Assembly (NCBI RefSeq): GCF_900475315.1
Contig: NZ_LS483369.1
Location: 1,116,001 to 1,180,000 of the forward strand
Reading direction: 5' to 3'
From: Neisseria cinerea
GTDB taxonomy: Bacteria; Pseudomonadota; Gammaproteobacteria; Burkholderiales; Neisseriaceae
Length of the DNA stretch: 64,000 nt
The position numbers and the translations under genes were made by a program. The notes under the pieces were generated by a model. The model worked only from the letters and a program-made list of their open reading frames with translations. It was not told the DNA's origin and searched no databases. Numbering within the stretch: position 1 is the stretch's first letter; each line of letters starts with the position of its first letter. Shown here one piece after another: positions 43,802-59,471 of the stretch.

Positions 43802-44347
43802 TCAGACTTTCAAAACAAGTTTGCGGTAAAGCCATTCGCCGGCAAACAATATCCCCATCAATACATAAGCAATCACGCCGGTATAAACCGCCCACCAATC
43901 GTATCGCCCCAACCAGGCCAACAAAGCGGCAAGCGTCCCGTTGATTATAAAAAATACGCACCAAACCTGCGTTACCCAGCGGGTATAGCGCACGGCTTGC
44001 CCGGGGAGTTCCGGCTGTTGCAAACGCGCGAGCCTTTCTATGACCGTCTGTTTGGCAAACAGGCTTCCCCCGAACACCGCCAACATCATCAAATTAACGA
44101 GGACAGGATACCAATACATTGAATCACGCCGCCCGAACACCAATACTGAGGCAAAAAACAGTGTAATAAACAAAGCCGTATAACGCTGTTGGGGAAATTT
44201 GGCAGTCAGAGCGCGCAGAAGCCACAACCCGCACATCGACGCCGCCAGCCAGACAAACCATCCCGCCTCCCTGCCGTAATACCACAAAGCGGGATAGGCA
44301 ATACTCGATACGGTCAGAAAAATATGTCCGAAAAAACCGAGTTTCAT
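43802..44347 (-). CDS. Integral membrane protein of the aryl polyene cluster (COG4648 type)
   Basis: The 181-residue protein has about five hydrophobic helices (from ILTVSSIAYPALWYYG-like N-terminus to YTGVIAYVLMGILFAGEWLYRK). Proteins of this type regularly accompany aryl polyene clusters; their exact role is unknown, perhaps holding the synthase at the membrane. ATG at 44347 is preferred over a TTG at 44362. An inverted DUS pair separates it from the ACP gene upstream. Confidence 0.75.
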   Translation of the reverse strand: MKLGFFGHIFLTVSSIAYPALWYYGREAGWFVWLAASMCGLWLLRALTAKFPQQRYTALFITLFFASVLVFGRRDSMYWYPVLVNLMMLAVFGGSLFAKQTVIERLARLQQPELPGQAVRYTRWVTQVWCVFFIINGTLAALLAWLGRYDWWAVYTGVIAYVLMGILFAGEWLYRKLVLKV

Positions 44348-44365
44348 TTTGAATCCGCACAAACG

Positions 44366-44404
44366 TTTTCAGACGGCATCCGATAAAAACATGCCGTCTG
44401 AAAA
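44366..44404 (-). terminator. Inverted DUS pair inside the leftward polyene unit
   Basis: TTTTCAGACGGCAT and ATGCCGTCTGAAAA around 11 nt lie between the second ACP stop (44423) and the membrane-protein gene. If it terminates, the membrane protein would be made at a lower level or from its own promoter. Confidence 0.6.
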
Positions 44405-44422
44405 ATAATTAGAAATACCCGA

Positions 44423-44668
44423 TTAGCCAGCCTGAATCTTCAATACCGCCTGTACTACGTCGTTGACGGTGCGGACATTGCGGAAATCTTCAGCTTGCAG
44501 CTTGCGGCCGGTTTCACGCTTGATACGGTCAATCAAATCGATGGCATCGATACTGTCGATTTCCAAATCTTCGTAAAGATTGGTATCGGGCGTAATCCGT
44601 TCCGGTTCGATTTCAAACAACTCGGTCAGGGTATCGCGCAACAACCGGTAGATTTCTTGTTCGGTCAT
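44423..44668 (-). CDS. Acyl carrier protein (second of the cluster)
   Basis: The 81-residue ACP has the phosphopantetheine serine in LEIDSIDAIDLIDRIK (Ser about residue 37). It would carry the growing polyene chain or the starter. The start is set at 44668 because AAGG sits at right spacing for this ATG, while it abuts the earlier ATG at 44677. It follows the first ACP by about ten bases. Confidence 0.92.
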   Translation of the reverse strand: MTEQEIYRLLRDTLTELFEIEPERITPDTNLYEDLEIDSIDAIDLIDRIKRETGRKLQAEDFRNVRTVNDVVQAVLKIQAG

Positions 44669-44679
44669 ATGTTTCATCC

Positions 44680-44940
44680 TTATGCTTGACGGTTTTTGAC
44701 AAAAGCGGCGAGTGTTTTGACATTGGCAAAATGTTCGCGCAAGTTGTCCTGCTCACCGTCCAGGCGGAAACCGAAATGTTTTTGTACCGCCAAGCCTAAT
44801 TCCAGAGCATCGACGGAATCCAAGCCCAACCCCCCGTCACCGAACAGCGCATCTTCGCTGCCGATGTCGGCGGCGGTTATATCTTCCAAAGCCAAACTGT
44901 CAATAATTAGTTGCTTGATTTGGGCTTCCAAGTCGTTCAT
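44680..44940 (-). CDS. Acyl carrier protein (first of the cluster)
   Basis: An 86-residue ACP with the serine in GGLGLDSVDALELGLAV (about residue 41). Two different ACPs side by side are typical of aryl polyene clusters, where one holds the aryl starter and the other malonyl or the elongating chain. The ATG overlaps the stop of the upstream acyltransferase gene (ATGA), with AAGGA before it. Confidence 0.92.
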   Translation of the reverse strand: MNDLEAQIKQLIIDSLALEDITAADIGSEDALFGDGGLGLDSVDALELGLAVQKHFGFRLDGEQDNLREHFANVKTLAAFVKNRQA

Positions 44941-45695
44941 ATGGTTTTCCTTGTAAAATAATCTTGCAGATATTCATTCAGCCGCCGAGCCGCAATCGGC
45001 AACGGTTTTTCGGCGAGCCAATCTTGGGGGAGGATGTCGTCTCCGACCGTAATTTCATACCGTATCCGTTTCGAAGGAATTCGGTACCACGGCTGTCCTT
45101 TTTTAAAATTGGGCGGATTCATTTTGATACATACAGGCGTAATCACTTCGGCATACCGCAGTCCCAAAGAAACCGCGCCCCGGTTCATCTTGACCCGTCC
45201 GTCCCACCCCGTTCTTGTTCCTTCGGGGAACACCAGCAGGCTCTGCCCGCTGTCAAAAACTGCCTTTACCGTTTCCAGCATTGCTTCCGATTCTTCGTTT
45301 GGAATATAGCCCGCACCTTTAATCTGGCTGCTCATTGCCGGATTGTGCTGCAAATCTTTTTTCACGATGCAATTCATTTCGGACACATGGCTGACAAGCA
45401 GCACCACATCCAACAGAGACGGATGGTTTGCCAAAATCAACTGTCCCGGTCGGTTGAGTTTTTCAATACCCTTGAACTCTACATCCAACACACCCGACCA
45501 TTTCAGATAAGCAACGAACAAACGCCAAGATGTTCCGATAATCCGGCGCGCCGCCAATTGGCGGGCGACAGACCTTGAAGTACCGTTTAAAGTGTAAGGC
45601 AGCAAAACCAATTTCATCATAATGCCGCCGACACCGAAAATCACAAATCCTAACCAAGTCGCCAAAAAACGGCGGCAATAATCCAATTTATCCAT
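44937..45695 (-). CDS. Lysophospholipid acyltransferase family protein (PlsC-like)
   Basis: About 252 residues with an N-terminal hydrophobic region and both PlsC motifs, NHPSLLD and FPEGTRTGWDG. Within an APE cluster such an enzyme probably transfers a fatty acyl or the polyene acyl chain to the lipid anchor. The start at 45695 overlaps the ketosynthase-like stop (ATGGATAA). The frame is open to 45752. Confidence 0.86.
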   Translation of the reverse strand: MDKLDYCRRFLATWLGFVIFGVGGIMMKLVLLPYTLNGTSRSVARQLAARRIIGTSWRLFVAYLKWSGVLDVEFKGIEKLNRPGQLILANHPSLLDVVLLVSHVSEMNCIVKKDLQHNPAMSSQIKGAGYIPNEESEAMLETVKAVFDSGQSLLVFPEGTRTGWDGRVKMNRGAVSLGLRYAEVITPVCIKMNPPNFKKGQPWYRIPSKRIRYEITVGDDILPQDWLAEKPLPIAARRLNEYLQDYFTRKTI

Positions 45696-46443
45696 TCTGC
45701 TGCCACAACCATTCACGATTGCGATATACCCGGCGATATTCCTGATTGCCATTCAGTAAAAAACGCACCCATTCCAAACCGCTCCAATATGCCTCGGATA
45801 GCATACCGGTTTCAGACGGCATATCATCCGAAGCAGACAGAGTCAGACTGTAACGCGTCCCTTTGGTCAGGACCATCGCCAAAGCATAAGCAAACGGAGC
45901 GCGAGTCGCCGATACGGCATATCCTTCCGGCAGCGGATCGTCCGCCACCAAAACCAAAACCGACCCGAATCCCTCTTTCAATAGGGACGCCGCTTCTGCC
46001 AAAGCCGTCTCCACACCATCGGCACACACGGCCAATGCCGTCTGCTCACTCATATCCTGCCTCAATATCGACCATTGCCCCGCCGTCGCATTGTGCACCG
46101 ACAAACCGAACGAAGTCGGTGAAACGGTTTGCGATTTCAACAGTTCCAACCACAAATCGAAACTACGCGCCATTTCCCCATCGTGCGAGGCATAAACTAC
46201 CGGACTGCCGGGATAGGCGGAGGCAATGTCCCAAGCCGCATCACATACCAAACGCGCCGCCTTACTCAAACGGCGGCGCTGCATAGCGGGCAGGAACGGC
46301 AATTCCGGCTTGACATCTGGCAAACCGTCGGCGAAACCCGGACATTCCGCCCACTGCCTCCACTGGGCCATATTACACATTTTGCTGCCTGAAACCCGCC
46401 ATGCGGAGATGTCGAAGTGAAACCGGCAAATGATAGACGGCAT
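45688..46443 (-). CDS. Ketosynthase-like protein lacking the active-site Cys
   Basis: The 251-residue protein resembles the N-terminal beta-ketoacyl synthase domain of the Ketoacyl-synt_2 type. Where a ketosynthase has its nucleophilic Cys this protein has SVHNATAGQWSI, and no HGT or KxxxGH motif follows, so it cannot condense by itself. It may be the partner (chain-length-factor-like) of one of the active ketosynthases. The ATG at 46443 is used; a TTG four codons earlier is open. Confidence 0.8.
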   Translation of the reverse strand: MPSIICRFHFDISAWRVSGSKMCNMAQWRQWAECPGFADGLPDVKPELPFLPAMQRRRLSKAARLVCDAAWDIASAYPGSPVVYASHDGEMARSFDLWLELLKSQTVSPTSFGLSVHNATAGQWSILRQDMSEQTALAVCADGVETALAEAASLLKEGFGSVLVLVADDPLPEGYAVSATRAPFAYALAMVLTKGTRYSLTLSASDDMPSETGMLSEAYWSGLEWVRFLLNGNQEYRRVYRNREWLWQQNG

Positions 46444-46595
46444 GGTTTCTTTCAAAAATTTACACTATGCCACATTCTAACCAAAGCCTATCTGCCTGAC
46501 AATGCCGAAAGCCAAACACATTGCCGCCCCTTTTTTTCCGACAGGCGCCATCTCCGTAGCAGACAGCCACATTAGCCTGAATTTACATTTATCAC

Positions 46596-46601
46596 TATAA
46601 T
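46596..46601 (+). promoter_or_regulatory. Candidate -10 box of the rightward polyene unit
   Basis: A perfect TATAAT lies 33 bp before the dehydratase ATG in the 190-bp divergent gap (46444-46633). The -35 region (TTAGCC, 18 bp upstream) is weak, which would fit an activated or low-level promoter. Confidence 0.4.
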
Positions 46602-46633
46602 GCCGATATTTGTGTGCCGCCCTACCGCAACAG

Positions 46634-47125
46634 ATGAATACACTGCCAGAATGCCCGATTACCGACACAGCCCCCCTGCTGCCGCACAGCGGACGCATGG
46701 TTCTGATAGACCGTATTAACCGATACGGCGATTATTTTGTCGAAGCAGGGGTGCAGATAAGGTCCGACCACATCCTTCTGGTCGACGGCATGCTGCCCTA
46801 CACGGCATTTATCGAACTGATGGCACAGGCTGTCGGTGCATATGCCGGCATCCAAGCCCGAAAAAACGCACAACCGGTCCGGCTCGGATTCCTGCTCGGC
46901 ACGCGCAAACTTGAAATTTTTACCCAATCCGTCCCTGTCGGAACACATTTGCTGGCAACGGCGCATATGTCTATTCAAGACGTCGGAGGTATGGGTGTGT
47001 TCGACTGCGAACTGCGTTGGACGGACGCACCGGAAACTTCGTCCGAAACACTCCCCTCAGACGGCATTTTGGCACGCGCCTCATTGAACGTGTACAGTCC
47101 CGAACACCCTGTCGAAATAACTTAA
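46634..47125 (+). CDS. Hotdog-fold 3-hydroxyacyl-ACP dehydratase (ApeP-like)
   Basis: The 163-residue protein has the hotdog-fold dehydratase start LLPHSGRMVLIDRINRYGD with a conserved His, and DGMLPYTAFIELMAQAVGAYAG for the central helix. It lacks the FabZ motif HFxxxPxxPG, as is usual for the second APE dehydratase. It would remove water after each ketoreduction to leave the conjugated double bond. First gene of the rightward unit with fabG-like and ketosynthase genes. ATG 46634 is preferred to an upstream GTG. Confidence 0.82.
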   Translation: MNTLPECPITDTAPLLPHSGRMVLIDRINRYGDYFVEAGVQIRSDHILLVDGMLPYTAFIELMAQAVGAYAGIQARKNAQPVRLGFLLGTRKLEIFTQSVPVGTHLLATAHMSIQDVGGMGVFDCELRWTDAPETSSETLPSDGILARASLNVYSPEHPVEIT

Positions 47126-47162
47126 TGCCGTCTGAACAGGCACACACATACGGAGAACAACC

Positions 47163-47891
47163 ATGACCGAAACCGTCCTGATTACCGGCTCAAACAGAGG
47201 CATAGGCAAAGCTGTCGCACTCGGTTTGGCAGAAGACGGCTTTGATATCGTCGTCCATTGCCGCAGCCGCCGCGATGAAGCCGAAGCCGTAGCGGAAGAA
47301 ATCCGAGTTTTGGGCAGACAGGCAAGGGTGTTGCAGTTTGACGTGTCAGACCGCGCAGCCTGCCGCGATATTTTGACTGCCGACATCGAAGCAAACGGCG
47401 CGTATTACGGCGTGGTGTTGAACGCCGGACTGACGCGCGACAATGCCTTCCCCGCGTTTTCAGACGACGATTGGGATTTGGTGCTGCGAACTAATTTGGA
47501 CGGTTTTTATAATGTATTGCACCCGTTGACCATGCCGATGATACGCCGCCGCAAAGCCGGGCGGATTGTGTGCATGGCGTCGGTGTCCGGCTTGACGGGC
47601 AACCGCGGTCAGGTCAATTACAGCGCGTCCAAAGCGGGCTTGATCGGCGCGGCGAAAGCCTTGGCGGTCGAACTGGCGAAACGCAAAATCACCGTCAACT
47701 GCGTGGCGCCGGGTTTGATCGATACGGACATTGTCGATGAAAATGTACCCGTCGAAGAAATTTTGAAAGCCGTCCCCGCAGCGCGTATGGGGCTGCCGGA
47801 AGAAGTAGCGCATGCGGTGCGTTTCCTGATGGATGAAAAAGCAGCGTATATTACGCGCCAAGTGATTGCGGTGAACGGAGGTTTGTGTTGA
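47163..47891 (+). CDS. 3-oxoacyl-ACP reductase, FabG-like
   Basis: The 242-residue short-chain dehydrogenase has the NADPH motif TGSNRGIGKAVALGL (about 8-22), NAG (about 86), the catalytic Ser/Tyr/Lys (SVSG about 136; YSASKAG about 150) and PGLIDTDIV. It reduces the 3-keto group during polyene extension. It overlaps the following ketosynthase start, and a good SD (GGAG) precedes it. Confidence 0.92.
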   Translation: MTETVLITGSNRGIGKAVALGLAEDGFDIVVHCRSRRDEAEAVAEEIRVLGRQARVLQFDVSDRAACRDILTADIEANGAYYGVVLNAGLTRDNAFPAFSDDDWDLVLRTNLDGFYNVLHPLTMPMIRRRKAGRIVCMASVSGLTGNRGQVNYSASKAGLIGAAKALAVELAKRKITVNCVAPGLIDTDIVDENVPVEEILKAVPAARMGLPEEVAHAVRFLMDEKAAYITRQVIAVNGGLC

Positions 47892-49123
47892 ATACCAGAA
47901 GAGTCGTAGTAACAGGCATAGGCGGCATTACCGCCTTCGGTCGTGACTGGCACAGCATTCAGACGGCATTCAAAGCCGAAAAAAACGCCGTCAAATATAT
48001 GGATTGGCACGAACGTTTCCCCGAATTGGAAGCGCAACTGGGTGCGCCGATTGAAAATTACGCGCCGCCGAAACATTGGACGCGCAAGCAGCTCAGAAGT
48101 ATGGGGCGCGTGTCGTATCTGTGCGTCGATGCGGCGGAGCAGGCTTTGACGGATGCCGGTTTGCTCGGAGACGAAAGTATTACCGACGGACGGATGGGCG
48201 TTGCCTGCGGCTCTTCCAGCGGCAGCACCAAAGACATCGGCGATGTGGGCGAATTGTTGCTGACTGGCACGTCGCGCAACTTCAGCGCCAACACCTATGT
48301 GCGTATGATGCCGCATACGACCGCCGCCAATATCGGCATCTTTTTCGGATTGAAAGGACGCATCATCCCGACATCGAGCGCGTGTTCGTCCGGCAGCCAA
48401 GGCATAGGTTATGCTTACGAAGCCATCAAATACGGCATGATAGACATGATGCTGGCGGGCGGCGGCGAAGAATTTTGTCCGTCCGAAGTTTATGTTTTCG
48501 ACTCGCTTTATGCCGCCAGCCGCCGCAACGGAGAACCGGAAGAAACCCCACGCCCATACGACGCGAACCGCGACGGCCTGGTCATCGGCGAAGGTGCAGG
48601 GATTTTTGTGCTGGAAGAGTTGGAACACGCCAAACGGCGCGGTGCGAAAATTTACGCCGAACTCGTCGGCTACGGCGCCAACAGCGACGGCAGCCACGTT
48701 ACCCAGCCGCAAAAAGAAACCATGCAGAAATGTATGGAACTTGCACTGCAAGATGCAGGCATTACGCCCGATAAAATCGGCTATGTAAACGGGCACGGCA
48801 CAGCAACCGAAAAAGGCGATATCGCCGAAACGCTGGCAACTGAAGCTGTATTCGGATTTGTGCCCGTCAGTTCGCAAAAAAGCTATTTAGGGCACACGCT
48901 CGGCGCGTGCGGCGCTCTGGAGGCATGGTTCTCGATTGAAATGATGAACGGCGGCTGGTTTGCACCGACCCTGAACTTGAACGACATTGATCCGCGCTGC
49001 GGCAAGGTGGACTATATTTTAAGCGGCGGACGTGAAATCCAAACCGATTACGTGATGAGCAACAATTTTGCCTTCGGCGGCGTGAATACCTCGCTGGTGT
49101 TCAAACGTTGGAAGAACGGATAA
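47888..49123 (+). CDS. Beta-ketoacyl-ACP synthase, FabF-like (main chain elongation)
   Basis: The 411-residue ketosynthase has the active Cys in TSSACSSGSQGIG (about 165), His in NGHGTATEKGD (about 302) and His in KSYLGHTLGACG (about 340). It should perform the repeated malonyl condensations. The likely start is TTG at 47888, with GGAGG five bases before; GTG at 47885 is too close. It shares the end of the reductase gene (TTGTGTTGA). Confidence 0.92.
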   Translation: MNTRRVVVTGIGGITAFGRDWHSIQTAFKAEKNAVKYMDWHERFPELEAQLGAPIENYAPPKHWTRKQLRSMGRVSYLCVDAAEQALTDAGLLGDESITDGRMGVACGSSSGSTKDIGDVGELLLTGTSRNFSANTYVRMMPHTTAANIGIFFGLKGRIIPTSSACSSGSQGIGYAYEAIKYGMIDMMLAGGGEEFCPSEVYVFDSLYAASRRNGEPEETPRPYDANRDGLVIGEGAGIFVLEELEHAKRRGAKIYAELVGYGANSDGSHVTQPQKETMQKCMELALQDAGITPDKIGYVNGHGTATEKGDIAETLATEAVFGFVPVSSQKSYLGHTLGACGALEAWFSIEMMNGGWFAPTLNLNDIDPRCGKVDYILSGGREIQTDYVMSNNFAFGGVNTSLVFKRWKNG

Positions 49124-49182
49124 AACAGGCGGCATTGACGGCAAGCTGCCGTATGGCAACGGTAAAATGACGCTTTACGGGT

Positions 49183-49809
49183 TTATTTGCCGCCTATGCG
49201 CTCGATCCGTGCAAGCTCCCGATAAGACTCCATTCCGCAATATTGCCACGCCAATTCGGCAGCTCCGCGCCACACGCAGGCGACAACCATACTGCCGCAC
49301 CAGACGGCGCTGACCGCGTGCCAACCGGTTCCACCATCCGCACGCAAACCGTAAACTGCCGAACCGTCTGTCCGATAACCGACTTTTGCCATATCTTGCG
49401 GAAAATCCAAACCGCAGGCTTTAAGCAGAGCCTCCTTGATACACCACAAACGGTAAAATGTTTCCCCGTCCCAGCCGGAACGTCCCAACAGAATTTGCTC
49501 CTCAGGTGAACAAACCCACTCGGAGAGCGCGCGGAAATCACGCGGGCGGACAGCCTCGATATCGACACCGCAAACCATGTCGCCATCACACACCAAAACT
49601 GCCGCGTACCCGTTGCTGTGCGAAAGCGACCGTACCTTACCTCCTTGTTGCTTTAAAAACCGGCTGACCTGCCAATCCGTCCGTCCTGCCAATTCCGGCG
49701 CGCGCAGCAAACGCGCCCTGTCCGCATCGTCCAGACAGGATTCCCGATAAGCGGTGGCGGCCGACTCATCGGCAAGGCGGCACTGCAATACTGCTTTTTT
49801 ATCCGGCAC
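49183..49809 (-). CDS. 4'-phosphopantetheinyl transferase superfamily protein
   Basis: The 208-residue Sfp/AcpT-type protein has GVDIEAVRPRDF (about residue 84) and FYRLWCIKEALLKACG (about 116-131), the metal- and CoA-binding motifs. It should activate the two ACPs. The start is GTG at 49809, with GGAGGG four bases upstream. It is transcribed opposite to the AMP-ligase gene, whose start lies only about 30 bp away, so their promoters overlap each other's coding sequence. Confidence 0.88.
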   Translation of the reverse strand: MPDKKAVLQCRLADESAATAYRESCLDDADRARLLRAPELAGRTDWQVSRFLKQQGGKVRSLSHSNGYAAVLVCDGDMVCGVDIEAVRPRDFRALSEWVCSPEEQILLGRSGWDGETFYRLWCIKEALLKACGLDFPQDMAKVGYRTDGSAVYGLRADGGTGWHAVSAVWCGSMVVACVWRGAAELAWQYCGMESYRELARIERIGGK

Positions 49810-49838
49810 GACACCCTCCGTTCTGCCATTTGGAATAT

Positions 49839-51554
49839 ATGACCCGAATGTTTGACATCCATCCCTCCGACGGCACACCGATTGCCCTAGACCCATTGTG
49901 GACCCGCGCCGATTTTATACGCACGGTACACGCCCTGTCGTTAAAATTAAAGCAAAACAACATCCGTTCGGCGGCATTGTGGTTTGACGATGCCGCACTG
50001 TTCGCATGTGCATTGCTTGCCGTTTGGCGCAGCGGCGGCAAAGCCCTCCTGCTGCCGAATACTGCACCCGGAAACCTGACTTGGGCGAAATCCGCACAAA
50101 TACTGTTGACCGACACCGATATTGTTTCAGACGGCATCAGCGTTTGGCAAATACCAACCCCTTCCGACGGCATGCCGTCTGAAAACCGCATACCGAAAAC
50201 ATTGGACATCCCGCCAGAATCAGAAGTGCATTTGCGCACGTCGGGTTCCGGCGGGGAAGCCAAGACGATCGTCAAAACCGCCGCGCAAATAGAATCGGAA
50301 GCCCGCACGCTGGCTACGGCAATCCCGTTCGGACACGGCAAAACCGCCGTCCTCGGCAGCGTATCCCCTCAACACATGTATGGGTTCACCTTCCGCTTCG
50401 CTCTTCCGCTGCTAATGGGGTGGGCCATGATCCGCAGGCAAAACGCCTATCCCGAACTGCTGCTGTCGGCAAGCCTGAACGTGCCGTCCGATTATCAAAA
50501 TGTCTGGATTGCCAGCCCGGCACTGCTCAACCGTTTCGGCGAAAATCGGGATTGGGCGGCGTTAAACGGAAGGATGGCCGGCATCGTTTCCGCAGGTGGG
50601 GAACTCCCCCCGGAAACTGCCGCCCTGTTGGAACAATATGCAGTCCGCCCTTACGAGGTCTACGGCAGTACGGAAACCGGCATCATTGCATCACGCCGGA
50701 AACAAACCTTATGGCAACCGTTCCCCAACGTCTCCGTCCGCAATACCGGCAAATCAGTGGAAATATCCTCGCCGTGGACAAATGGCTTGCAATACATTGC
50801 CGACTGCATCGAAACACACGAAGACGGTTTTGTCCTGTTGGGCAGGCAGGATAGGATAATCAAACTGGCAGACAAACGCATTTCGCTCAACCAAATCGAA
50901 CACGAATTACTGAAACACCCCTGGATTGCCGACGCACATTGCGCCCTCCATCCGAAACACGGGCGCATTGCCGCCTGGACGGCATTGGGCGAGGAAGGCA
51001 TTGCCGCATGGTGCGCCCGGGGACGTGCCGCCGTTATCGCCGCACTCAGGCAACACCTTGCGAAAACGCAAGATACGGCTGCCCTTCCGCGCTACTGGCG
51101 TTTTACAGACCGTCTGCCGCGCAACGGACAAGGGAAAATTACCGCAACGGACTTTCAGACGGCATTGACAGAACCCGCAGCCCCCCGATGGCATATCTTG
51201 CCGCCCGAAGGAAACCGATTACGCTATCAAACCCGCGTACCGCTGGATTTACCCTATTTCGGGGGACATTTTTCCACCTTTCCCCTCGTCCCCGGCGCAA
51301 TCGAATTGGAATGGATACGCCGGCTCGCCGCACGGCACCCCTTCGGCAGGCAAAACATTATCCGTATCGAAAACCTGAAATACCAGCAATTTATCCGTCC
51401 ATATGACGACATTTCCGTAGAACTCGGATACGATGCCGATAAAAACAAACTGTCGTTTAAAATCCAAAAACAGGATGCCGTCTGCTCCTCGGGGAAGATG
51501 GTATTCGACACATTACCGGACAATTCCAACCAAACCACAAGGGAGGAACCATGA
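49839..51554 (+). CDS. AMP-forming aryl/acyl-ACP ligase fused to hotdog dehydratase
   Basis: A fusion of about 571 residues. The first 440 are an adenylating enzyme: P-loop LRTSGSGGEAKTI (about 133), YGSTETG (about 280), the GRQDRIIKLADKRISLNQIE hinge (about 335) and the C-terminal lysine motif PRNGQGKI (about 430). The last 115 are a FabZ-like dehydratase with GGHFSTFPLVPGAIELEW (about 475). The ligase part likely loads the aryl starter onto an ACP and the hotdog part acts in elongation. In the enterobacterial clusters these functions are separate genes. The P-loop and hinge differ from the common SGTTGxPK and Kxx(G)xRI. ATG 49839 is chosen; TTG 49830 and ATG 49848 are possible. Confidence 0.88.
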   Translation: MTRMFDIHPSDGTPIALDPLWTRADFIRTVHALSLKLKQNNIRSAALWFDDAALFACALLAVWRSGGKALLLPNTAPGNLTWAKSAQILLTDTDIVSDGISVWQIPTPSDGMPSENRIPKTLDIPPESEVHLRTSGSGGEAKTIVKTAAQIESEARTLATAIPFGHGKTAVLGSVSPQHMYGFTFRFALPLLMGWAMIRRQNAYPELLLSASLNVPSDYQNVWIASPALLNRFGENRDWAALNGRMAGIVSAGGELPPETAALLEQYAVRPYEVYGSTETGIIASRRKQTLWQPFPNVSVRNTGKSVEISSPWTNGLQYIADCIETHEDGFVLLGRQDRIIKLADKRISLNQIEHELLKHPWIADAHCALHPKHGRIAAWTALGEEGIAAWCARGRAAVIAALRQHLAKTQDTAALPRYWRFTDRLPRNGQGKITATDFQTALTEPAAPRWHILPPEGNRLRYQTRVPLDLPYFGGHFSTFPLVPGAIELEWIRRLAARHPFGRQNIIRIENLKYQQFIRPYDDISVELGYDADKNKLSFKIQKQDAVCSSGKMVFDTLPDNSNQTTREEP

Positions 51555-52636: not shown

Positions 52637-52638
52637 AC

Positions 52639-53364
52639 ATGAACATCCTCGCCCTCATCCCCCATTACAACCACCCGACAACCGTCGGCACGGTTGCACG
52701 CAGCCTGCGCGCCCACGGTTTGGACGTGTTGGTCGTGGACGACTGCTCCCGCCCCGACTGCATACCCGTTTTAGAAAATCTGGCTTCAGACGGCATCCGC
52801 GTCATCCGCCGTACATACAACGGTGGCAAAGGCGCGGCAGTACGCACGGGTTTCGAGGCGGCGGCGGAGCTGGGATACAGCCACGTCCTGCAAATCGACG
52901 CCGACGGCCAACACTGTTTGGACGATGTGCCAAAGTTCGTCCGTGCCGCGCAACTCAATCCCGAAGCCCTCATCTGCGGTCAGCCGCAATACGGCGGCGA
53001 CGCACCCAAATCACGATTGTACGGGCGCAAAATTACCGACTTTTGGAATATGGTTCACACCTGGTCGTCTGATATTAAAGACGGTATGTGCGGCTTCCGT
53101 CTTTATCCGTTGCCGTCCGCCTTGGCGGTAATACGCGAAGAACACGTCGGCAACCGTATGGACTTCGATATCGAAATCCTAATCCGGCTATATTGGCGCG
53201 GCATCAAAACCGTGTGGATTCCCACGCCCGTCCGTTACGCCGCAGACGGCATTTCCCACTTCCGCACCCTTGCCGACAACATCCGTATCAGCCAAATGCA
53301 CACACGGCTGTTTTTCGGTATGCTCAAATGGCGTTGGCGCATATTGAAAGACACATTCCGATGA
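52639..53364 (+). CDS. Family 2 glycosyltransferase (DPM1-like)
   Basis: The 241-residue GT-A enzyme has ALIPHYNHPTTVGTVARSL at the N-terminus, VVDDCSRPD (about 36) and the metal motif QIDADGQH (about 88). No membrane helices are present. It may add a sugar to the polyene-lipid or make its glycan anchor. It lies two bases after the methyltransferase stop. Confidence 0.85.
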   Translation: MNILALIPHYNHPTTVGTVARSLRAHGLDVLVVDDCSRPDCIPVLENLASDGIRVIRRTYNGGKGAAVRTGFEAAAELGYSHVLQIDADGQHCLDDVPKFVRAAQLNPEALICGQPQYGGDAPKSRLYGRKITDFWNMVHTWSSDIKDGMCGFRLYPLPSALAVIREEHVGNRMDFDIEILIRLYWRGIKTVWIPTPVRYAADGISHFRTLADNIRISQMHTRLFFGMLKWRWRILKDTFR

Positions 53365-54293
53365 ACGGCACTTCCCGACACTGGGCGGAACAAAACGAAC
53401 GCGGCAACCGCCTGTTCCTCAAGCTGACGGCGGTAATTGTTCGTTACTTCCCTCCCCTGCTGATGAAACCGTGTATTTGGTTTGTCGTCCTATATTTCTA
53501 CCTGACCTCACCCCGGGTGCGGAAAAACCTCCATACCTACCAAAACCGCCTGCGATATACCTTTCCCGACGCTATGCCGTCTGAAAACCGCATATTCGCG
53601 CAGTTTTTGGCATTCGGCGAAGCCGTTTGCGACCGGTTTGCCGTATGGCAGCGCAAAATACGTTACGAAGACCTGATTATCGAAGACCCCGACAACCTGA
53701 CCGCCGCCATGTATCAAAACGGGCGCGGACAGATTTTTGCCTGTTCGCACTTGGGCAATACGGAAATCTGCCGCGCACTGGTTTCCCACCACCGGAATTT
53801 CAAACTCAATGTCCTCGTACACAGCCGCCACGCGCAAATGTTCAACGAAGCCCTGCAACAGGCGGGCGCGGACAAAATCCAACTGATACAGGTAAGCGAC
53901 TTGGACGCATCGCTGATGATGACGCTTAACCGGCGCATTGAAGCAGGGGAATGGTTGGCAATCGCCGCCGACCGCATTCCCGTCCGGGGCGAAAAAACCG
54001 TAACCGTCGATTTTTTGCAACACCATACCGAAATACCGCAAGGTGCGTGGATTCTGGCATTGCTGCTGAAAACCAAGGTCAACGCGCTGTTTTGCATCAA
54101 ACAAGACGGACGCTACCGCCTGAAACTTCGCCCTATGATCGACACATCGGATTGGACGCGGGCGGAACGCACGCAAAAAATCAAAGAATCCGCGCAACAT
54201 TTCGCCCGCATTTTAGAAGAAGAATGCCGTCTGAATCCGCTGCAATGGTTCAATTTTTACGACTTCTGGCATAGGGAGCACCATCCCCGATGA
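53361..54293 (+). CDS. LpxL/HtrB-like acyltransferase
   Basis: The 310-residue protein has a membrane segment near residues 27-50 and the acyltransferase motif FACSHLGNTEICRAL (HLGNxE, about 128), then ADRIPVRGEKTVTVDFLQ (about 208), as in LpxL-type enzymes of polyene and resorcinol clusters. It may join the aryl polyene to its lipid or sugar carrier. It overlaps the glycosyltransferase stop (ATGA). Confidence 0.82.
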   Translation: MNGTSRHWAEQNERGNRLFLKLTAVIVRYFPPLLMKPCIWFVVLYFYLTSPRVRKNLHTYQNRLRYTFPDAMPSENRIFAQFLAFGEAVCDRFAVWQRKIRYEDLIIEDPDNLTAAMYQNGRGQIFACSHLGNTEICRALVSHHRNFKLNVLVHSRHAQMFNEALQQAGADKIQLIQVSDLDASLMMTLNRRIEAGEWLAIAADRIPVRGEKTVTVDFLQHHTEIPQGAWILALLLKTKVNALFCIKQDGRYRLKLRPMIDTSDWTRAERTQKIKESAQHFARILEEECRLNPLQWFNFYDFWHREHHPR

Positions 54294-54730
54294 ACAAAAA
54301 ACACATTTTCTGCCGCCACAGCCACATCATCCAAGTCCCGTTTTTCGATGTCGATCCGATGCGGATCGTTTGGCACGGCAACTACGTCAAATACCTCGAA
54401 GTCGCACGCTGCGCCTTCCTTGACAGCATAGGCTACGGCTACGATGAAATGGGCAGGCGGGGCTTCAGTTGGCCCATCGTCAAAATGGACTTGAAATACA
54501 TACGCCCCGCACGGTTCGGACAAACCATACGCATCGACATGGCAATCAGCGAAATCGACAGCTGCCTGCGTATCGACTACACTTTGTCCGATGAAAAAAC
54601 CGGCGAAAAACTGACCCGCGCATCGACCACGCAGGCGGCAGTATCCCTGGAAACCGGAGAAATACAGTTCCAAACGCCGGAAAGCTGGCTCGAAGCCATA
54701 CGGAGTCATCCGACTTTTCAAGCCGCATAA
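54290..54730 (+). CDS. Acyl-CoA/ACP thioesterase, 4-hydroxybenzoyl-CoA type
   Basis: The 146-residue hotdog enzyme has the YbgC/4HBT motif VPFFDVDPMRIVWHGNYVKY with the catalytic Asp (about residue 20). It would release the polyene acid or an aryl acid from its thioester. The start overlaps the acyltransferase stop (ATGA). Confidence 0.88.
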   Translation: MNKKHIFCRHSHIIQVPFFDVDPMRIVWHGNYVKYLEVARCAFLDSIGYGYDEMGRRGFSWPIVKMDLKYIRPARFGQTIRIDMAISEIDSCLRIDYTLSDEKTGEKLTRASTTQAAVSLETGEIQFQTPESWLEAIRSHPTFQAA

Positions 54731-54788
54731 GCCACCGTCCGTTTTCAGACGGCATTTTTACCCATTATTGCCACACCGACAGACAACC

Positions 54789-55382
54789 ATGAAAAAATAC
54801 CTGCTTGCCGCACTCCTTGCCGCAACCTCCCTTTCCGCCTCGGCATTTTCCACTGCCGAACTGACCCGGATACTGCAAAAACCCGACAACATCCAAGGCA
54901 ACTTTATCCAATACCGCCATCTGAAATCCCTATCCAAACCGATGGCTACAACCGGAAAATTCGTACTGATGCCCAAACGCGGTCTGCTCTGGCAGATGCA
55001 AAAACCGTTTGCCGCCGTCCTCCGCGTCCGTTCAGACGGCATCAGCCAATGGAACGGTAAAGGCTGGATAATGCCCGATACTGGAAAAATGCCCGGACAA
55101 AACAGGCAAATCAAACTCTTTCTTGACCTTATCGGCGGCGATACGCAAGGACTGGAAAAACAGTTTGACCTGAAACTCGAAGGGTCGGTGCAAAAATGGA
55201 CGCTGCAACTCACACCGAAAACACTGGTGATGAAACAAATCTTCAACCATATCGACATCAGCGGGGACAACGTCGTACGCCGTATCGAACTGCATGAAAA
55301 ACAAGGGGACAAAACCGATATGCAGTTTAACGGCATAACCGTCGGCAACCCTCTGGACGAATTTGCCAAACAATCACTCTGA
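54789..55382 (+). CDS. LolA-like outer-membrane carrier protein
   Basis: The 197-residue periplasmic protein has a cleavable signal peptide (MKKYLLAALLAATSLSASA) and the LolA/LolB-like half-barrel pattern (GNFIQYRHLKSLSKPMATTGKFVL; GLLWQMQKPF). Such proteins occur in aryl polyene clusters and probably ferry the lipid-linked pigment across the periplasm. It is distinct from the housekeeping LolA. A DUS lies between it and the thioesterase. ATG 54789 puts the signal at the start. Confidence 0.86.
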   Translation: MKKYLLAALLAATSLSASAFSTAELTRILQKPDNIQGNFIQYRHLKSLSKPMATTGKFVLMPKRGLLWQMQKPFAAVLRVRSDGISQWNGKGWIMPDTGKMPGQNRQIKLFLDLIGGDTQGLEKQFDLKLEGSVQKWTLQLTPKTLVMKQIFNHIDISGDNVVRRIELHEKQGDKTDMQFNGITVGNPLDEFAKQSL

Positions 55383-55398
55383 CACCGTCCGAACCGCC

Positions 55399-57705
55399 AT
55401 GATCCGCCTGATTTATACCCTGTTGATGTCTGCACTTACCGTCTTTGTCTGTTACAGCATGACAACGCGCGCCTGGCTGCAGACCGACCTTACCGAACTG
55501 CTGCCCCAAAGCAGCCAAGATACCGTTTTGCAGGCGGCCGAACACGCCGGCGACGCACAAATCAACAGTCAAATCATCCTGCTTGCCGGCAGCCCCCAAC
55601 CCGAAACCGCATTTCAGACGGCATCGGAAATCGCCTCCTTATGGCGGCAAAGCGGGATATTTTCCGAAGTAAACAGCCAAATCAGCCCCGACCTTGCACA
55701 AATCCGCCAAGACATCGGCAGAATCAGTTTAGCCGTCTTACCCGAAGCCCAACGGCGTTTGCTGACCGAAAAACCCGCTGACTATTTCCGCCGGCGCGCC
55801 GAAGATGCCGCCAACCCGTTTGCCGTATCCTCCCTGCCCTTAGACGAGGACTGGCTGGGTTTCGGGCGTTTCGTTGCCGGCAAAATCAATCCCCAAACCC
55901 GTCTGCAATGGCATCCCGAAAACGGTATGCTGTTCAACGAAGACAACGGGAAAACCTGGGTTTGGATACGCGCCAAGCTGCCCGGCAACGCCCTGCCTCA
56001 AGATGCCTTGGGTCATTTATTCCAAAAAACACAGACATTGGCATCCGACAGGCACGCCGAAATCCTGACCGGGGGCGGCGCACTTTTTGCAGCAGCCGCC
56101 AAAGCCGATGCCGAAAAAGAAAGCCGGATAATGGGTTTTGCCGGCATCGTCCTGACCGCCGTCCTCATCTTGTGGGTTTTCCGCAGCGCGCGCACTTTCT
56201 GGCTGCTGCTGCCGCCTGCGGCGGGAATGCTGGCGGGTTTGGCGGCGACGCTGGCGGTATTCGGACATATCCACGCCCTGACGCTGGTTATCGGTACGAG
56301 CCTGATCGGAATGCTGGTCGATTTCCCGCTGCACTGGCTGACCCCGTCGGTATTCTCATCATGGCAGGCGAAACCGGCGATGAAACAGGTATTGCCCACC
56401 TTTGCCGTCAGCCTGCTGATTACCGTTTCGGGATACGCGCTGCTCTGGTTCACACCTTTGCCGGTTTTACAACAAACTGCCGTTTTCTCCGGATTCTCGC
56501 TACTTGGCGCATTCGGCGCGACCATCTGCTGGCTGCCGCCCCTGTTTGCCCGTTATCAGGCAAAACCCGTACCTTTTGCCGCCTTAAGTACCATACTGGG
56601 CAAACATATCAAGAGACGGTTTCCCTCATCCTTCCGTTATCCCGCAGCAGTTTTCCTGATGGTTTTCACCGCCGTCGGACTGTGGCGCAGCAACTGGCAC
56701 GACGACATCCGCCAATGGGTAAATATGCCGCCCGGACTGTTGTCGCAAATACAAAAAATCGGCACATTGGGCGGAACCGATTTCAGCGGTCAATATCTGG
56801 TTGCCGAAGCCGCAAGCGAAGACGCGCTGCTGTTAAAAAATGCCGAACTGCGCCGCACCCTCGCCCCCCTGATTCGACAAGGCAAACTGAAAGATATCCA
56901 ATCGCTGGATCAATTCATTCTGCCGGCAGCCGAACAAAACCGCCTGAAACAACATTTGCGCACCATTGCAGACAAACCCGGAAACTACCGCGCCATGTAC
57001 GAACTGGGTATTCCGGAAGACACGCTGAAATCCGCCCTGCTGCAAGCGACCGGCACGCCTACCCTCACCCTTTCAGACGGCATCGCCCTGCCTCTGGCAC
57101 AGGCTTGGAAACCCCTGTATCTCGGCCAAGTCGAACCGCATCGTTATGCCTCGGTTATCCGCCTGAACGGCATGACCGAACCGGAAACCGTCCGCAAAAC
57201 GGCGGAAACCGTTCCGGGAATCAAATGGGCGGACAAGCGTGGCAGGCTCAACGACCTGTTCCGCCATACGCGCAATCAGACGGCTTGGCTGAAATTGTCG
57301 TCTTACCTGCTGGCATGGCTGCTGCTGTGGCGGCTGTTTGGCGCACGGCTGGGCGGAAAAATCCTTGCCGTACCCGTCGCTGCCGCCATAGGTACTGTTG
57401 CCGTATTAGGTTGGCTGGGCATACCCGTTAGCCTGTTTGCCATGTTCGGATTGTTGCTGGTTTCCGCCATTGGCATTGACTATGCCGTTTACGTACTCAA
57501 TGCTGGACACAGTACCGATGCACGGCTGGGCGGCATGCTGCTTGCCGCGCTCACGACCGGTATCTCGTTTATCCTGCTTGCCTTCAGCGGCACACCGGCC
57601 GTCGCCGCATTCGGCATGACCGTCAGCATCGGAGTAATATTAAATCTGTGGCTGGCGGCACGGCTGATGTACTCGGTCCCGGATACGCAACATCCGCGCC
57701 GTTAA
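55399..57705 (+). CDS. MMPL/RND-type exporter
   Basis: The 768-residue membrane protein has the MMPL arrangement: an N-terminal helix, a large periplasmic domain, five to six helices (about 245-385), a second periplasmic domain and a second helix group (about 635-760; TGISFILLAFSGTPAVAAFGM). It likely pumps the polyene-lipid out of the inner membrane towards the LolA-like carrier. The frame opens at 55363 inside the preceding gene; ATG 55399 is used. Confidence 0.88.
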   Translation: MIRLIYTLLMSALTVFVCYSMTTRAWLQTDLTELLPQSSQDTVLQAAEHAGDAQINSQIILLAGSPQPETAFQTASEIASLWRQSGIFSEVNSQISPDLAQIRQDIGRISLAVLPEAQRRLLTEKPADYFRRRAEDAANPFAVSSLPLDEDWLGFGRFVAGKINPQTRLQWHPENGMLFNEDNGKTWVWIRAKLPGNALPQDALGHLFQKTQTLASDRHAEILTGGGALFAAAAKADAEKESRIMGFAGIVLTAVLILWVFRSARTFWLLLPPAAGMLAGLAATLAVFGHIHALTLVIGTSLIGMLVDFPLHWLTPSVFSSWQAKPAMKQVLPTFAVSLLITVSGYALLWFTPLPVLQQTAVFSGFSLLGAFGATICWLPPLFARYQAKPVPFAALSTILGKHIKRRFPSSFRYPAAVFLMVFTAVGLWRSNWHDDIRQWVNMPPGLLSQIQKIGTLGGTDFSGQYLVAEAASEDALLLKNAELRRTLAPLIRQGKLKDIQSLDQFILPAAEQNRLKQHLRTIADKPGNYRAMYELGIPEDTLKSALLQATGTPTLTLSDGIALPLAQAWKPLYLGQVEPHRYASVIRLNGMTEPETVRKTAETVPGIKWADKRGRLNDLFRHTRNQTAWLKLSSYLLAWLLLWRLFGARLGGKILAVPVAAAIGTVAVLGWLGIPVSLFAMFGLLLVSAIGIDYAVYVLNAGHSTDARLGGMLLAALTTGISFILLAFSGTPAVAAFGMTVSIGVILNLWLAARLMYSVPDTQHPRR

Positions 57706-57747
57706 CCACCCTGCTGCCGCTTCAGACGGCATTTTTGAAAGGAACTT

Positions 57748-58272
57748 ATGCGCCTGACCACAACCCTGCTTGCCATATTGACCGCAAAACTGCTCGCCGC
57801 CTGCTCCTCATACACCCTACCCGTCCCCCAAACCCAACCACGTCTTGTCGAAGACGTACAATGGTTCAAATGGGAACGCTACAATAAGGGGCAAGAATCG
57901 GTACAAACCGGCATATTGGCAGCCGAACAGCTGGAAGACGGAATCCGATTTGTACAAACCGACATATTAGGCGCACCGGTTTCACGCCAGACTATCAACA
58001 GCAGAGGCTGGCAAAATGACGGATTTATCATGCCGAACATATCGTCTCGACTACTGTTTGCCGCACTGCTCCCGCTGATAACCGCCGAGAATGCCGCACC
58101 CCTCTATCCCGAATCCAAACGGACAGACGCCGACACATCCTTCTGCAGCAAGGGGGCATTGTTCCGTTACCGCAATCGAGACATATGGTGCGTCAACCAC
58201 ACCGGCGGGCAATTTTTGATTACCCTACCCGACCAAACCAGCTGGTCGGTTGCACCGATTGAACCATTATGA
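57748..58272 (+). CDS. DUF3261 lipoprotein of the polyene cluster
   Basis: The 174-residue protein has lipoprotein signal MRLTTTLLAILTAKLLAAC (lipobox LAAC) and a C-terminal pair of Cys (SFCSKGAL; IWCVNHTG). DUF3261 lipoproteins accompany aryl polyene clusters and may receive the pigment at the outer membrane, LolB-like; this is inference. GGA is upstream of the ATG. It overlaps the final ketosynthase gene. Confidence 0.78.
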   Translation: MRLTTTLLAILTAKLLAACSSYTLPVPQTQPRLVEDVQWFKWERYNKGQESVQTGILAAEQLEDGIRFVQTDILGAPVSRQTINSRGWQNDGFIMPNISSRLLFAALLPLITAENAAPLYPESKRTDADTSFCSKGALFRYRNRDIWCVNHTGGQFLITLPDQTSWSVAPIEPL

Positions 58273-59471
58273 ACATACCTGTTTACCTCGGAAGTCCTGC
58301 ACTCACCAGCGCATTGGGCAGCGGCCTGCACACCCACATCGACGCCCTGCTGTCCCCTTCTTCCAAACCGGCACTGACATTTTCATCCGACTGGGTTGAC
58401 GGCAAAAACCTTGCTTTCGGTATGGTAAAAGAAACCCTGCGTCCCTTTTCAGACGGCACGCCCGCACACTGCCGCAGCCGCACTAACCGGCTGCTTTGGC
58501 ACACGCTCGAACAAATCGAACCTCAAATTTACGCCGCCATACGACGATACGGCGCAAACAGGATTGCCGTCGTTATCGGCACATCCACCGGCGGTGCAGA
58601 TGAAAACATCCCGATGTTCCGACAGGCAATGCAGGGAAAAGCCTGGCAAGACCTCACGTTCAATCAATGCCAACACCTCATGAACGCACCTGCCGATTTC
58701 ATTGCCGACGCTTACGGGCTAAACGGCCTGCGTTACGTCGTTTCCACCGCCTGCACTTCCGGCGCGCGCGCATTAATCAGTGCCGCCCGCCTGCTTCGAG
58801 CCGGTATGTGCGATGCCGTCATCTGCGGCGGCGCGGACACACTCTCGCCGCTGACCGTCAACGGATTCGCCTCACTGGAAGTCTTGTCCCCAAACATTGC
58901 CAATCCCTTTTCCGCCAACCGCGACGGCATCAATATCGGCGAAGGCGCAGGCGTATTCATCATGACGCGCGATGCGGATTTTTCCGGCGGCATGCAGCTT
59001 CTGGGTTATGGCGCAAGCAGCGATGCCTACCATATGTCTTCGCCACGCCCCGACGCGCAAGGCGCAATCCTCGCCTTTCAGACGGCATTGCAACACGCCG
59101 GACTCAAACCCGAAGACATCGGCTGGATTAATCTGCACGGCACCGGGACGCACCACAACGACAGTATGGAAAGCCGTGCCGTTGCAGCGGTCTTCGGCAA
59201 CAATACGCCCTGCACTTCCACCAAGCCGCAAACCGGGCATACTTTAGGCGCGGCGGGTGCAATCGAAGCCGCATTCGCGTGGGGCATTGCCGACCGGCGC
59301 CTCAATCCGGAAAATCGGCTTCCTCCCCAGCTTTGGGACGGGCAAAACGATCCGGACCTTCCCGCCATCAACCTTACCGGCGGCAACAGCTTCTGGACAA
59401 CGGAAAAACACATTGCCGCCAGCTCGTCATTTGCCTTCGGAGGAAGCAACTGCGTTTTACTCATCGGATGA
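58269..59471 (+). CDS. Beta-ketoacyl-ACP synthase (second active ketosynthase)
   Basis: The 400-residue enzyme keeps the full triad: Cys in STACTSGARALI (about 160), His in LHGTGTHHND (about 295) and His in KPQTGHTLGAAG (about 328). It probably performs the first condensation with the aryl starter or the shorter chain steps. The start overlaps the DUF3261 stop (ATGA). It is the last gene of the cluster, 53 bp before a tRNA. Confidence 0.92.
   Translation: MNIPVYLGSPALTSALGSGLHTHIDALLSPSSKPALTFSSDWVDGKNLAFGMVKETLRPFSDGTPAHCRSRTNRLLWHTLEQIEPQIYAAIRRYGANRIAVVIGTSTGGADENIPMFRQAMQGKAWQDLTFNQCQHLMNAPADFIADAYGLNGLRYVVSTACTSGARALISAARLLRAGMCDAVICGGADTLSPLTVNGFASLEVLSPNIANPFSANRDGINIGEGAGVFIMTRDADFSGGMQLLGYGASSDAYHMSSPRPDAQGAILAFQTALQHAGLKPEDIGWINLHGTGTHHNDSMESRAVAAVFGNNTPCTSTKPQTGHTLGAAGAIEAAFAWGIADRRLNPENRLPPQLWDGQNDPDLPAINLTGGNSFWTTEKHIAASSSFAFGGSNCVLLIG

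What the first reader, a model, noticed from the sequence alone, without database searches (positions are those of the whole stretch)
43802..59471. Complete aryl polyene-type pigment cluster in a Neisseria genome
Two ACPs, three ketosynthase-type proteins, a reductase, two dehydratase domains, a starter ligase, a phosphopantetheinyl transferase, a methyltransferase, a glycosyltransferase, two acyltransferases, a thioesterase, a LolA-like carrier, an MMPL pump and a DUF3261 lipoprotein match the aryl polyene class known from E. coli, Vibrio and Xenorhabdus. All frames are intact. It predicts a yellow, membrane-bound antioxidant pigment and may mark a commensal lineage.
Basis: partly seen in the sequence, partly recalled or inferred. 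Interest (0 to 1): 0.75.

Follow-up and report, generated by a model that had tools for sequence, protein, structure and literature searches.

The report
Intact aryl polyene cluster in Neisseria
This Neisseria genome carries a complete, well-kept set of genes for an aryl polyene lipid, a known kind of bacterial antioxidant pigment found in many Neisseria species, while a gonococcus and a probable meningococcus keep only broken remains of it at the same spot.

Summary
Window 43802-59471 carries 18 open reading frames; 16 of the 18 E. coli CFT073 Ape proteins are the best hit of a window protein; ApeC, ApeO and ApeR are closest to solved Ape proteins; codon comparison with three close relatives shows purifying selection. 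It is a new member of a known kind; aryl polyene clusters in Neisseria are in print. Corrections: the ketosynthase at 47885/47888 is ApeR, that at 58269 ApeO; the second dehydratase is fused to the ligase; 'DUF3261' was not confirmed. It does not mark one commensal lineage: 35 of 46 Neisseria species genomes have both ApeC and ApeN. Less expected is a fossil at the same ubiD-lgtF site in N. gonorrhoeae DSM 9188 and a probable meningococcus: both share one base-identical 1,191-bp deletion, and in both apeR runs into apeO as a hybrid ketosynthase, with about 10.3 kb lost. Pigment is unproven: colonies of two species whose genomes hold the cluster are scored grey, and an N. cinerea isolate unpigmented.

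The parts
43802..44347 (-). apeG-like membrane protein (COG4648 in E. coli)
   Evidence: 56% to CFT073 ApeG over 104 aa; no Pfam family over its cut-off
44423..44677 (-). acyl carrier protein ApeF
   Evidence: PF00550 53 bits; 53% to Ec ApeF
44680..44940 (-). acyl carrier protein ApeE
   Evidence: PF00550 25 bits; 51% to Ec ApeE
44937..45695 (-). ApeD lysophospholipid acyltransferase
   Evidence: PF01553; 36% to Ec ApeD
45688..46443 (-). ApeC chain length factor
   Evidence: PF13723 245 bits; its only PDB matches at E<=0.001 are 6qsp_B and 7f28_A, partners of ApeO; no Cys in residues 101-130
46444..46633 (.). divergent intergenic region between the G-F-E-D-C and P-Q-R blocks
   Evidence: sequence; promoter-like matches on both strands, but over 43700-59700 their number equals chance, 11 vs 10.8; similar in N. 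bergeri
46634..47125 (+). ApeP dehydratase
   Evidence: PF22817 ApeP-like 49 bits vs 27; only PDB match 6qsr_B; 30% to Ec ApeP
47163..47891 (+). ApeQ ketoreductase (FabG2)
   Evidence: TIGR01831 FabG2 384 vs 339 bits; 55% to Ec ApeQ
47885..49123 (+). ApeR ketosynthase (start GTG 47885 or TTG 47888)
   Evidence: 57% to Ec ApeR; best PDB matches 4ewg and 7f27; Cys166/His303/His336, Tyr137 and Phe204
49183..49809 (-). phosphopantetheinyl transferase of the cluster
   Evidence: PF01648 48 bits; AcpT model 40 bits vs cut-off 174; no counterpart in the CFT073 cluster
49848..51554 (+). ApeH-ApeI fusion: starter acyl-ACP ligase plus hotdog dehydratase domain
   Evidence: 31% to Ec ApeH (aa 10-437) and 28% to Ec ApeI (aa 468-551); 3esi/6qsr_A at C-terminus; in frame in 27 of 27 testable Neisseria loci of 36
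51551..52636 (+). ApeB SAM methyltransferase
   Evidence: NF053543 FlxJ family 625 vs 560 bits; 46% to Ec ApeB; not found in the N. bergeri, N. viridiae and G022 loci
52639..53364 (+). ApeJ glycosyltransferase half (GT2)
   Evidence: 50% to the N-terminal part of Ec ApeJ
53361..54293 (+). ApeJ acyltransferase half (LpxL-like)
   Evidence: 31% to the C-terminal part of Ec ApeJ; PF03279
54290..54730 (+). ApeK thioesterase
   Evidence: PF13279; 40% to Ec ApeK
54789..55382 (+). ApeL LolA-like carrier
   Evidence: PF19574; 31% to Ec ApeL
55399..57705 (+). ApeM MMPL/RND transporter
   Evidence: 26% to Ec ApeM over residues 175-768; PF03176 19.9 bits, cut-off 20.5
57748..58272 (+). ApeN-position lipoprotein
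   Evidence: lipobox; stands between M and O as in E. coli; homologues in 35 of 46 Neisseria genomes; no family match
58269..59471 (+). ApeO ketosynthase
   Evidence: 42% to Ec ApeO; best PDB matches 6qsp_A and 7f28_B, ApeO chains; Cys162/His290/His324
44508..45698 (.). stretch missing, with base-identical ends, from N. gonorrhoeae DSM 9188 and the probable meningococcus
48688..59003 (.). stretch lost by apeR-apeO joining in the probable meningococcus (about 10.3 kb; about 99 bp less in N. gonorrhoeae DSM 9188)
   Evidence: ends uncertain by about 20 bases where the two genes agree

Best explanation
A complete aryl polyene (APE) biosynthesis and export cluster under purifying selection. Most likely working: UbiC makes 4-hydroxybenzoate; the ApeH domain loads it on an ACP activated by the cluster's own PPTase; ApeR and the ApeO-ApeC pair add malonyl units; ApeQ reduces, and ApeP with the ApeI domain dehydrates, each round to give an aryl polyene; ApeB methylates the ring; ApeK releases it; ApeJ (split in two here) and ApeD attach it to a lipid; ApeL, ApeM and the ApeN-position lipoprotein carry it to the outer membrane, where it would quench reactive oxygen. 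Shown here: gene content, orthology, catalytic residues of the two ketosynthases, a UbiC-family gene, selection. Inferred from E. coli, Xenorhabdus and Acinetobacter work: every reaction, the product and its role. In the gonococcal genome and the probable meningococcal genome the locus is a fossil with a shared deletion and with apeR joined to apeO.
For: 16 of 18 CFT073 Ape proteins are the best hit of a window protein, each the expected one (one-way blastp; reference table PMC8253772 Table 1). ApeC's only PDB matches are 6qsp_B and 7f28_A and ApeO's best are 6qsp_A and 7f28_B, the X. doucetiae and A. baumannii ApeO-ApeC pairs; ApeR's best are 4ewg and 7f27, both ApeR (identities from PMC8358021). 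ApeP matches only 6qsr_B and the ligase C-terminus matches 6qsr_A (that 6qsr is the X. doucetiae ApeI-ApeP pair is recalled). The aryl-stacking Tyr135 and Phe202 of A. baumannii ApeR are kept. A UbiC-family match over cut-off, over model positions 69-161 of 168, lies in the same genome. dN/dS 0-0.33 against N. bergeri, no stops or gaps in 17 ORFs. ApeC and ApeN co-occur: of 46 genomes 35 have both, 9 neither, 2 ApeC only, the two fossils.
Against: No chemistry. N. bergeri and N. viridiae colonies were scored grey on blood agar and an N. cinerea isolate unpigmented, though neither study looked for APE. ApeN is not recognisable by sequence. A Phe called conserved in ApeR (AbApeR Phe118) is Val, Met or Leu in 22 of 22 Neisseria rows, two of them remnants. 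ApeA has no counterpart, though its deletion keeps pigment in E. coli.
Confidence: 0.93

Rival explanations
1. A flexirubin-type or other aryl-polyene ester pigment rather than a plain APE lipid.
For: The methyltransferase passes the FlxJ family cut-off (624.7 vs 560 bits); the FlxB reductase and LolA2 flexirubin models also match, below cut-off (262.8 vs 340; 66 vs 125).
Against: No dialkylresorcinol or ammonia-lyase family among the Pfam matches of the 18 ORFs; expected best hits to the CFT073 cluster, whose product is an APE.
Confidence: 0.03
2. The genes are intact but silent or expressed only in the host, so the strain is not visibly pigmented in ordinary culture.
For: Grey colonies on blood agar of two species whose genomes here hold the cluster; unpigmented N. 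cinerea isolate.
Against: Purifying selection on 17 ORFs; the intergenic region is similar in N. bergeri; an oral metatranscriptome study reports aryl polyene clusters of Neisseria and other Proteobacteria with raised expression in healthy subjects (PMC6469967, passages).
Confidence: 0.35
3. The ketosynthases belong to an ordinary fatty-acid or glycolipid pathway and no polyene is made.
For: ApeR and ApeQ match FabF- and FabG-type models; the one SDR, ApeQ, also matches Pfam adh_short_C2, a model titled enoyl-ACP reductase.
Against: ApeC and ApeO match only or best the APE chain length factor and its partner; ApeP-like family over cut-off; ApeQ passes the FabG2 ketoreductase cut-off and no second, separate reductase is among the 18 ORFs; the genome has another ketosynthase outside the cluster.
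Confidence: 0.02

Closest known systems
APE_Ec cluster of E. coli CFT073 (apeA-R, c1204-c1186)
   Same: 16 of 18 proteins are expected best hits; same runs C-D-E-F-G, H-I, J-K-L-M-N-O and P-Q-R
   Different: Here four blocks on both strands instead of one direction; ApeH and ApeI fused; ApeJ split in two; own PPTase; no ApeA; ApeN not matched by sequence
APE proteins of Xenorhabdus doucetiae with solved structures (6qsp; 6qsr recalled as ApeI-ApeP)
   Same: Best PDB match of ApeO; ApeC, ApeP and the ApeI domain also match
   Different: Sequence divergence; cluster order not compared
APE cluster of Acinetobacter baumannii (7f27 ApeR, 7f28 ApeO-ApeC)
   Same: Catalytic residues and the aryl-stacking Tyr and Phe kept; ApeI fused to the C-terminus of ApeH there too (PMC8041823, passage)
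   Different: AbApeR Phe118 replaced by Val/Met/Leu in the Neisseria rows; cluster order not compared
APE genes reported in Neisseria
   Same: Clusters by genome mining (PMC8549736, PMC6469967, PMC11316581; passages); an 'ApeQ' of N. meningitidis MC58 used as a homologue (PMC8041823, passages)
   Different: Those passages give no gene-level anatomy and do not mention that the locus is broken in pathogens

Membership tests
Aryl polyene (APE) gene cluster | ApeO ketosynthase with ApeC chain length factor | tested here: met
   Best PDB matches are the ApeO and ApeC chains of 6qsp and 7f28
Aryl polyene (APE) gene cluster | Second, FabB-like ketosynthase ApeR | tested here: met
   57% to Ec ApeR; 4ewg/7f27 best
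Aryl polyene (APE) gene cluster | ApeQ reductase and ApeP/ApeI dehydratases, no separate enoyl reductase | tested here: met
   PF22817 over cut-off; ApeI 28.2 of 28.5 bits plus 3esi/6qsr_A; FabG2 over cut-off, the same protein also matching Pfam adh_short_C2
Aryl polyene (APE) gene cluster | ApeH acyl-ACP ligase and two ACPs | tested here: met
   substrate not tested
Aryl polyene (APE) gene cluster | 4-hydroxybenzoate supply (UbiC) | tested here: met
   PF04345 42.3 bits vs 23.6, model positions 69-161 of 168, at G000:C1:363137-363412
Aryl polyene (APE) gene cluster | ApeL-ApeM-ApeN export set | tested here: inconclusive
   L and M matched; N only by lipobox and position
Aryl polyene (APE) gene cluster | Aryl polyene product, absorbance near 440 nm | not testable with these tools
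   needs extraction
Flexirubin cluster | FlxJ-type methyltransferase | tested here: met
   NF053543 624.7 vs 560 bits; not specific, as the same protein is 46% identical to Ec ApeB
Flexirubin cluster | FlxB reductase and LolA2 over their cut-offs | tested here: not met
   262.8 vs 340; 66 vs 125 bits
Flexirubin cluster | Dialkylresorcinol synthesis genes | tested here: inconclusive
   none among the Pfam matches of the 18 ORFs; rest of the genome not searched

The most novel reading that the evidence does not exclude
The human pathogens of the genus lost this envelope polyene in steps that can still be read: one deletion shared base for base by gonococcus and probable meningococcus, and joining of the paralogous apeR and apeO genes that threw out ligase, glycosyltransferase, thioesterase and exporter. 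The leftover hybrid ketosynthase still passes a curated family cut-off and so would be named as a normal enzyme. Loss of the polyene may have been favoured on the way to invasive or urogenital life.
Probability: 0.3. Interest if true: 0.6.

Novelty: new member of a known kind. Interest (0 to 1): 0.36.

Why it matters
APE protects E. coli against peroxide and aids biofilm formation (PMC8253772, abstract and passages). An intact cluster in a close relative of the meningococcus and gonococcus, with readable fossils in one genome of each (the meningococcal one by inference), turns a vague question (do commensal and pathogenic Neisseria differ in envelope antioxidants?) into one that gene removal in a commensal can test. 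It also warns that a 'beta-ketoacyl-ACP synthase' next to lgtF in pathogens may be a hybrid fossil: the one in the probable meningococcus scores 593 bits against a cut-off of 470, and a structural paper treats the meningococcal MC58 ApeQ as an APE reductase without, in the passages read, mentioning a broken locus (PMC8041823). It might also bear on a published remark that meningococcal fabF and acpP paralogs have dissimilar mutant phenotypes (PMC3334622, passages); that link is a guess, as locus tags could not be checked.

Tried and rejected
Considered and rejected: flexirubin (two of three flexirubin models under cut-off); ordinary fatty-acid genes; recent foreign island: 17 AT-DUS copies in the 15.7-kb cluster against 52 in the 64-kb window, so the cluster is written in the native DNA-uptake dialect. 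Naming the window's species failed: AT-DUS 1,437 and AG-DUS 247 do not equal the 1,198 and 212 printed for N. cinerea NCTC10294 (PMC7643975 Table 2, passage). Naming G019 rests on inference: capsule-export family TIGR01010 in it and in none of the other 5 genomes searched, no GH2 (lacZ-type) match in any of 8 genomes (that N. lactamica carries lacZ is recalled), 98-99% flank identity; a paper title concerns capsule genes in non-pathogenic Neisseria, so this marker is not decisive; and G019 lacks apeQ whereas strain MC58 is said to have one, so it would be a different strain type. ApeN identity could not be shown: Pfam none, hhalign 5%; a structure job for it was not finished when last polled. 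The intergenic alignment was given wrong stretches for two of four rows; only the N. bergeri row is used. The ApeO row of G022 hit a paralogue because its contig ends, and is dropped; its ApeN and lgtF rows are absent for the same or unknown reason. 'NMB1703' gave 0 papers; a search with fabF and lgtF gave 1. No statement that the APE locus is broken in pathogenic Neisseria was seen in searches; of the papers they listed I opened only PMC8549736, PMC8253772, PMC11316581, PMC6469967, PMC7643975, PMC6760525, PMC12054151 (nothing on polyenes), PMC8358021, PMC8041823 and PMC3334622, in passages or sections, none in full.
Full report
Observation. The window lies at G000:C1:1116001-1180000 of a 1,832,904-bp Neisseria genome. 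Between 43802 and 59471 there are 18 open reading frames in four blocks: G-F-E-D-C on the minus strand, P-Q-R on the plus strand, a phosphopantetheinyl transferase on the minus strand, and HI-B-Jgt-Jat-K-L-M-N-O on the plus strand. Letters follow the E. coli CFT073 nomenclature of PMC8253772 Table 1 (section read).

Identity. One-way BLASTP against the annotated CFT073 cluster (L061) gives expected best hits to 16 of its 18 proteins: F 53%, E 51%, Q 55%, R 57%, J glycosyltransferase part 50%, B 46%, O 42%, K 40%, D 36%, J acyltransferase part 31%, H 31%, L 31%, C 30%, P 30%, I 28%, M 26%, G 56% over 104 residues. ApeA has no counterpart, ApeN is not recognisable, and the PPTase has none in CFT073. 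Against solved structures, ApeC matches only 6qsp_B and 7f28_A; ApeO matches 6qsp_A best; ApeP matches only 6qsr_B; the ligase C-terminus matches 3esi_A best and 6qsr_A; ApeR matches 4ewg and 7f27 best. PMC8358021 (passages) states that 6QSP is X. doucetiae ApeO-ApeC, 7F28 A. baumannii ApeO-ApeC, 7F27 ApeR, and that 4EWG appears to be an ApeR; that 6qsr is ApeI-ApeP is recalled. It also says Tyr135 and Phe202 of ApeR stack the aryl group: both, and the catalytic Cys, are kept in 23 of 23 rows (22 Neisseria, two of them remnants, plus E. coli), and both His in 22 of 23, the gonococcal row not reaching that far. Phe118, described there as conserved, is Val, Met or Leu in the 22 Neisseria rows and Phe in E. 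coli, which may alter the ApeR pocket. The ApeH-ApeI fusion is in frame in 27 of 27 loci where both parts were found, 9 of 36 not being testable; E. coli has them apart; A. baumannii has the same fusion (PMC8041823, passage), so it is not new.

Is it maintained? Compared with N. bergeri (L024) and N. viridiae (L025), 17 ORFs align without stops or gaps and with dN/dS 0-0.33; in a third relative (G022, L026), whose contig ends inside apeM, the values run to 0.42 with one gap, and its mis-hit ApeO row is dropped. The methyltransferase gene apeB was not found in the three relatives' loci, so their product should carry an unmethylated ring. A chorismate-lyase family match, the expected source of 4-hydroxybenzoate, lies elsewhere in the genome.

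Distribution. The ApeC family PF13723 is found in 37 of 46 Neisseria species genomes and in 54 of 83 Neisseriaceae genomes, 9 of 12 genera. ApeN homologues occur in 35 of 46: exactly the PF13723 set minus G014 and G019. Of 36 relative loci fetched, 33 hold C, D, E and F together; the others are the two remnants and one contig end. Having both genes does not mean one cluster: where ApeC and ApeN lie on one contig (29 of 35 genomes, the window's included), they are 2.7-33 kb apart in 17 and 77-985 kb apart in 12, so in many species the pathway is split over the chromosome. One other genome (G004, L045) shares the order P-Q-R, PPTase, H-I-B-J-K-L, but its ApeN is 142 kb away. UbiD was seen beside the cluster in 5 of the 36 fetched stretches, those of the closest relatives and the two remnants.

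Fossils. Record lengths and positions tie G014 to N. gonorrhoeae DSM 9188, G005 to N. bergeri and G039 to N. viridiae. G019 is inferred, not proven, to be N. meningitidis. In G014 and G019 the ubiD-lgtF interval is a ruin. Both lack window 44508-45698 with the same joint to the base, removing two thirds of apeF, all of apeE and apeD, and the last 11 bases of apeC. In both, the start of apeR runs on into the end of apeO. In G019 the switch is at equal positions, within a short shared stretch (window 48675-48687 with 59004-59018). In G014 it is out of register by 99 bp (48692 with 58913-58921). The two genes are 48% identical at aligned sites. Either two joinings occurred, or one of the G014 type was later trimmed by 99 bp; the data do not decide. 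The joining removed the PPTase, H-I, B, J, K, L, M and N. In G019 an IS1595-family transposase stands where apeP, apeQ and the starts of apeC and apeR were, and apeG is split by an insertion. In G014 frame-shifting indels lie in apeG (5), apeP (2), apeQ (1), the apeR part (2) and the apeO part (1), none in the apeC and apeF remains; in N. bergeri the same test shows none in G, F, C, P, Q, R and lgtF, and one compensating pair in apeO. The G019 hybrid keeps an open frame of 397 codons without the first stretch of ApeR and scores 593 bits against a 470-bit cut-off for a ketosynthase family, so annotation pipelines may call it an intact enzyme. These are one genome per species; strains may differ, and MC58 is reported to have an ApeQ that G019 lacks (PMC8041823).

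What is known. Genome mining has reported APE clusters in Neisseria (PMC8549736, PMC6469967; passages) and in N. leonii (PMC11316581; passage), and PMC8041823 uses a meningococcal MC58 ApeQ as a homologue. I saw no paper describing the locus as broken in pathogens in the searches listed in Tried and rejected. So the cluster is an ordinary member of a known class; the remnant history looks unreported within those searches.

Phenotype. Evidence for pigment in this lineage is poor: N. bergeri and N. viridiae were scored grey on blood agar, as were all isolates tested (PMC6760525, section read), and an N. cinerea throat isolate was unpigmented while N. subflava isolates were pigmented, two of them yellowish (PMC7643975, passages). 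Blood agar at 20 h may hide a faint cell-bound yellow, and whether those isolates carry the cluster is not known. I therefore hold the gene-level call at 0.93 and visible pigment in ordinary culture well below that.

Judgement. Observation confirmed; class confirmed; novelty low for the cluster, moderate for the fossil evidence.

Noticed in passing
related genomes G004, G008, G013, G018, G021, G023, G024, G035-G038, G045: In 12 of 29 genomes with ApeC and ApeN on one contig the two genes lie 77-985 kb apart, so the APE pathway is scattered over the chromosome in many Neisseria.
   Followed up: partly
window 46872-49111 (apeQ-apeR): This block is 86-87% identical in DNA to three distant Neisseria species genomes (G018, G023, G026), while the rest of the cluster that aligns, apart from pieces under 60 bp, is 66-72% identical to them; exchange of the block or very uneven constraint.
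   Followed up: partly
ApeR residue Val120, window 47888-49123: A cavity residue reported as conserved Phe in ApeR homologues is Val, Met or Leu in 22 of 22 Neisseria rows; possible effect on chain length.
   Followed up: partly
N. bergeri L024, N. viridiae L025, G022 L026: The apeB methyltransferase is not found in the three closest intact loci, predicting an unmethylated polyene there.
   Followed up: partly
genome G000: Only three PF00109 ketosynthases were found in the genome: one outside the cluster, and ApeO and ApeR inside it.
   Followed up: no
G007:C1:1824084-1825571: A 2.6-Mb Neisseria species genome without ApeC has a UbiD 99% identical to the window's, though its best lgtF-like match is only 29% identical; recent exchange of ubiD is possible.
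   Followed up: no
window 42960-43270: The stretch holding most of a 94-aa ORF (42994-43278, no family) is missing between ubiD and the DUF2199 gene in N. bergeri, N. gonorrhoeae DSM 9188 and G019, while the DUF2199 gene stays.
   Followed up: no
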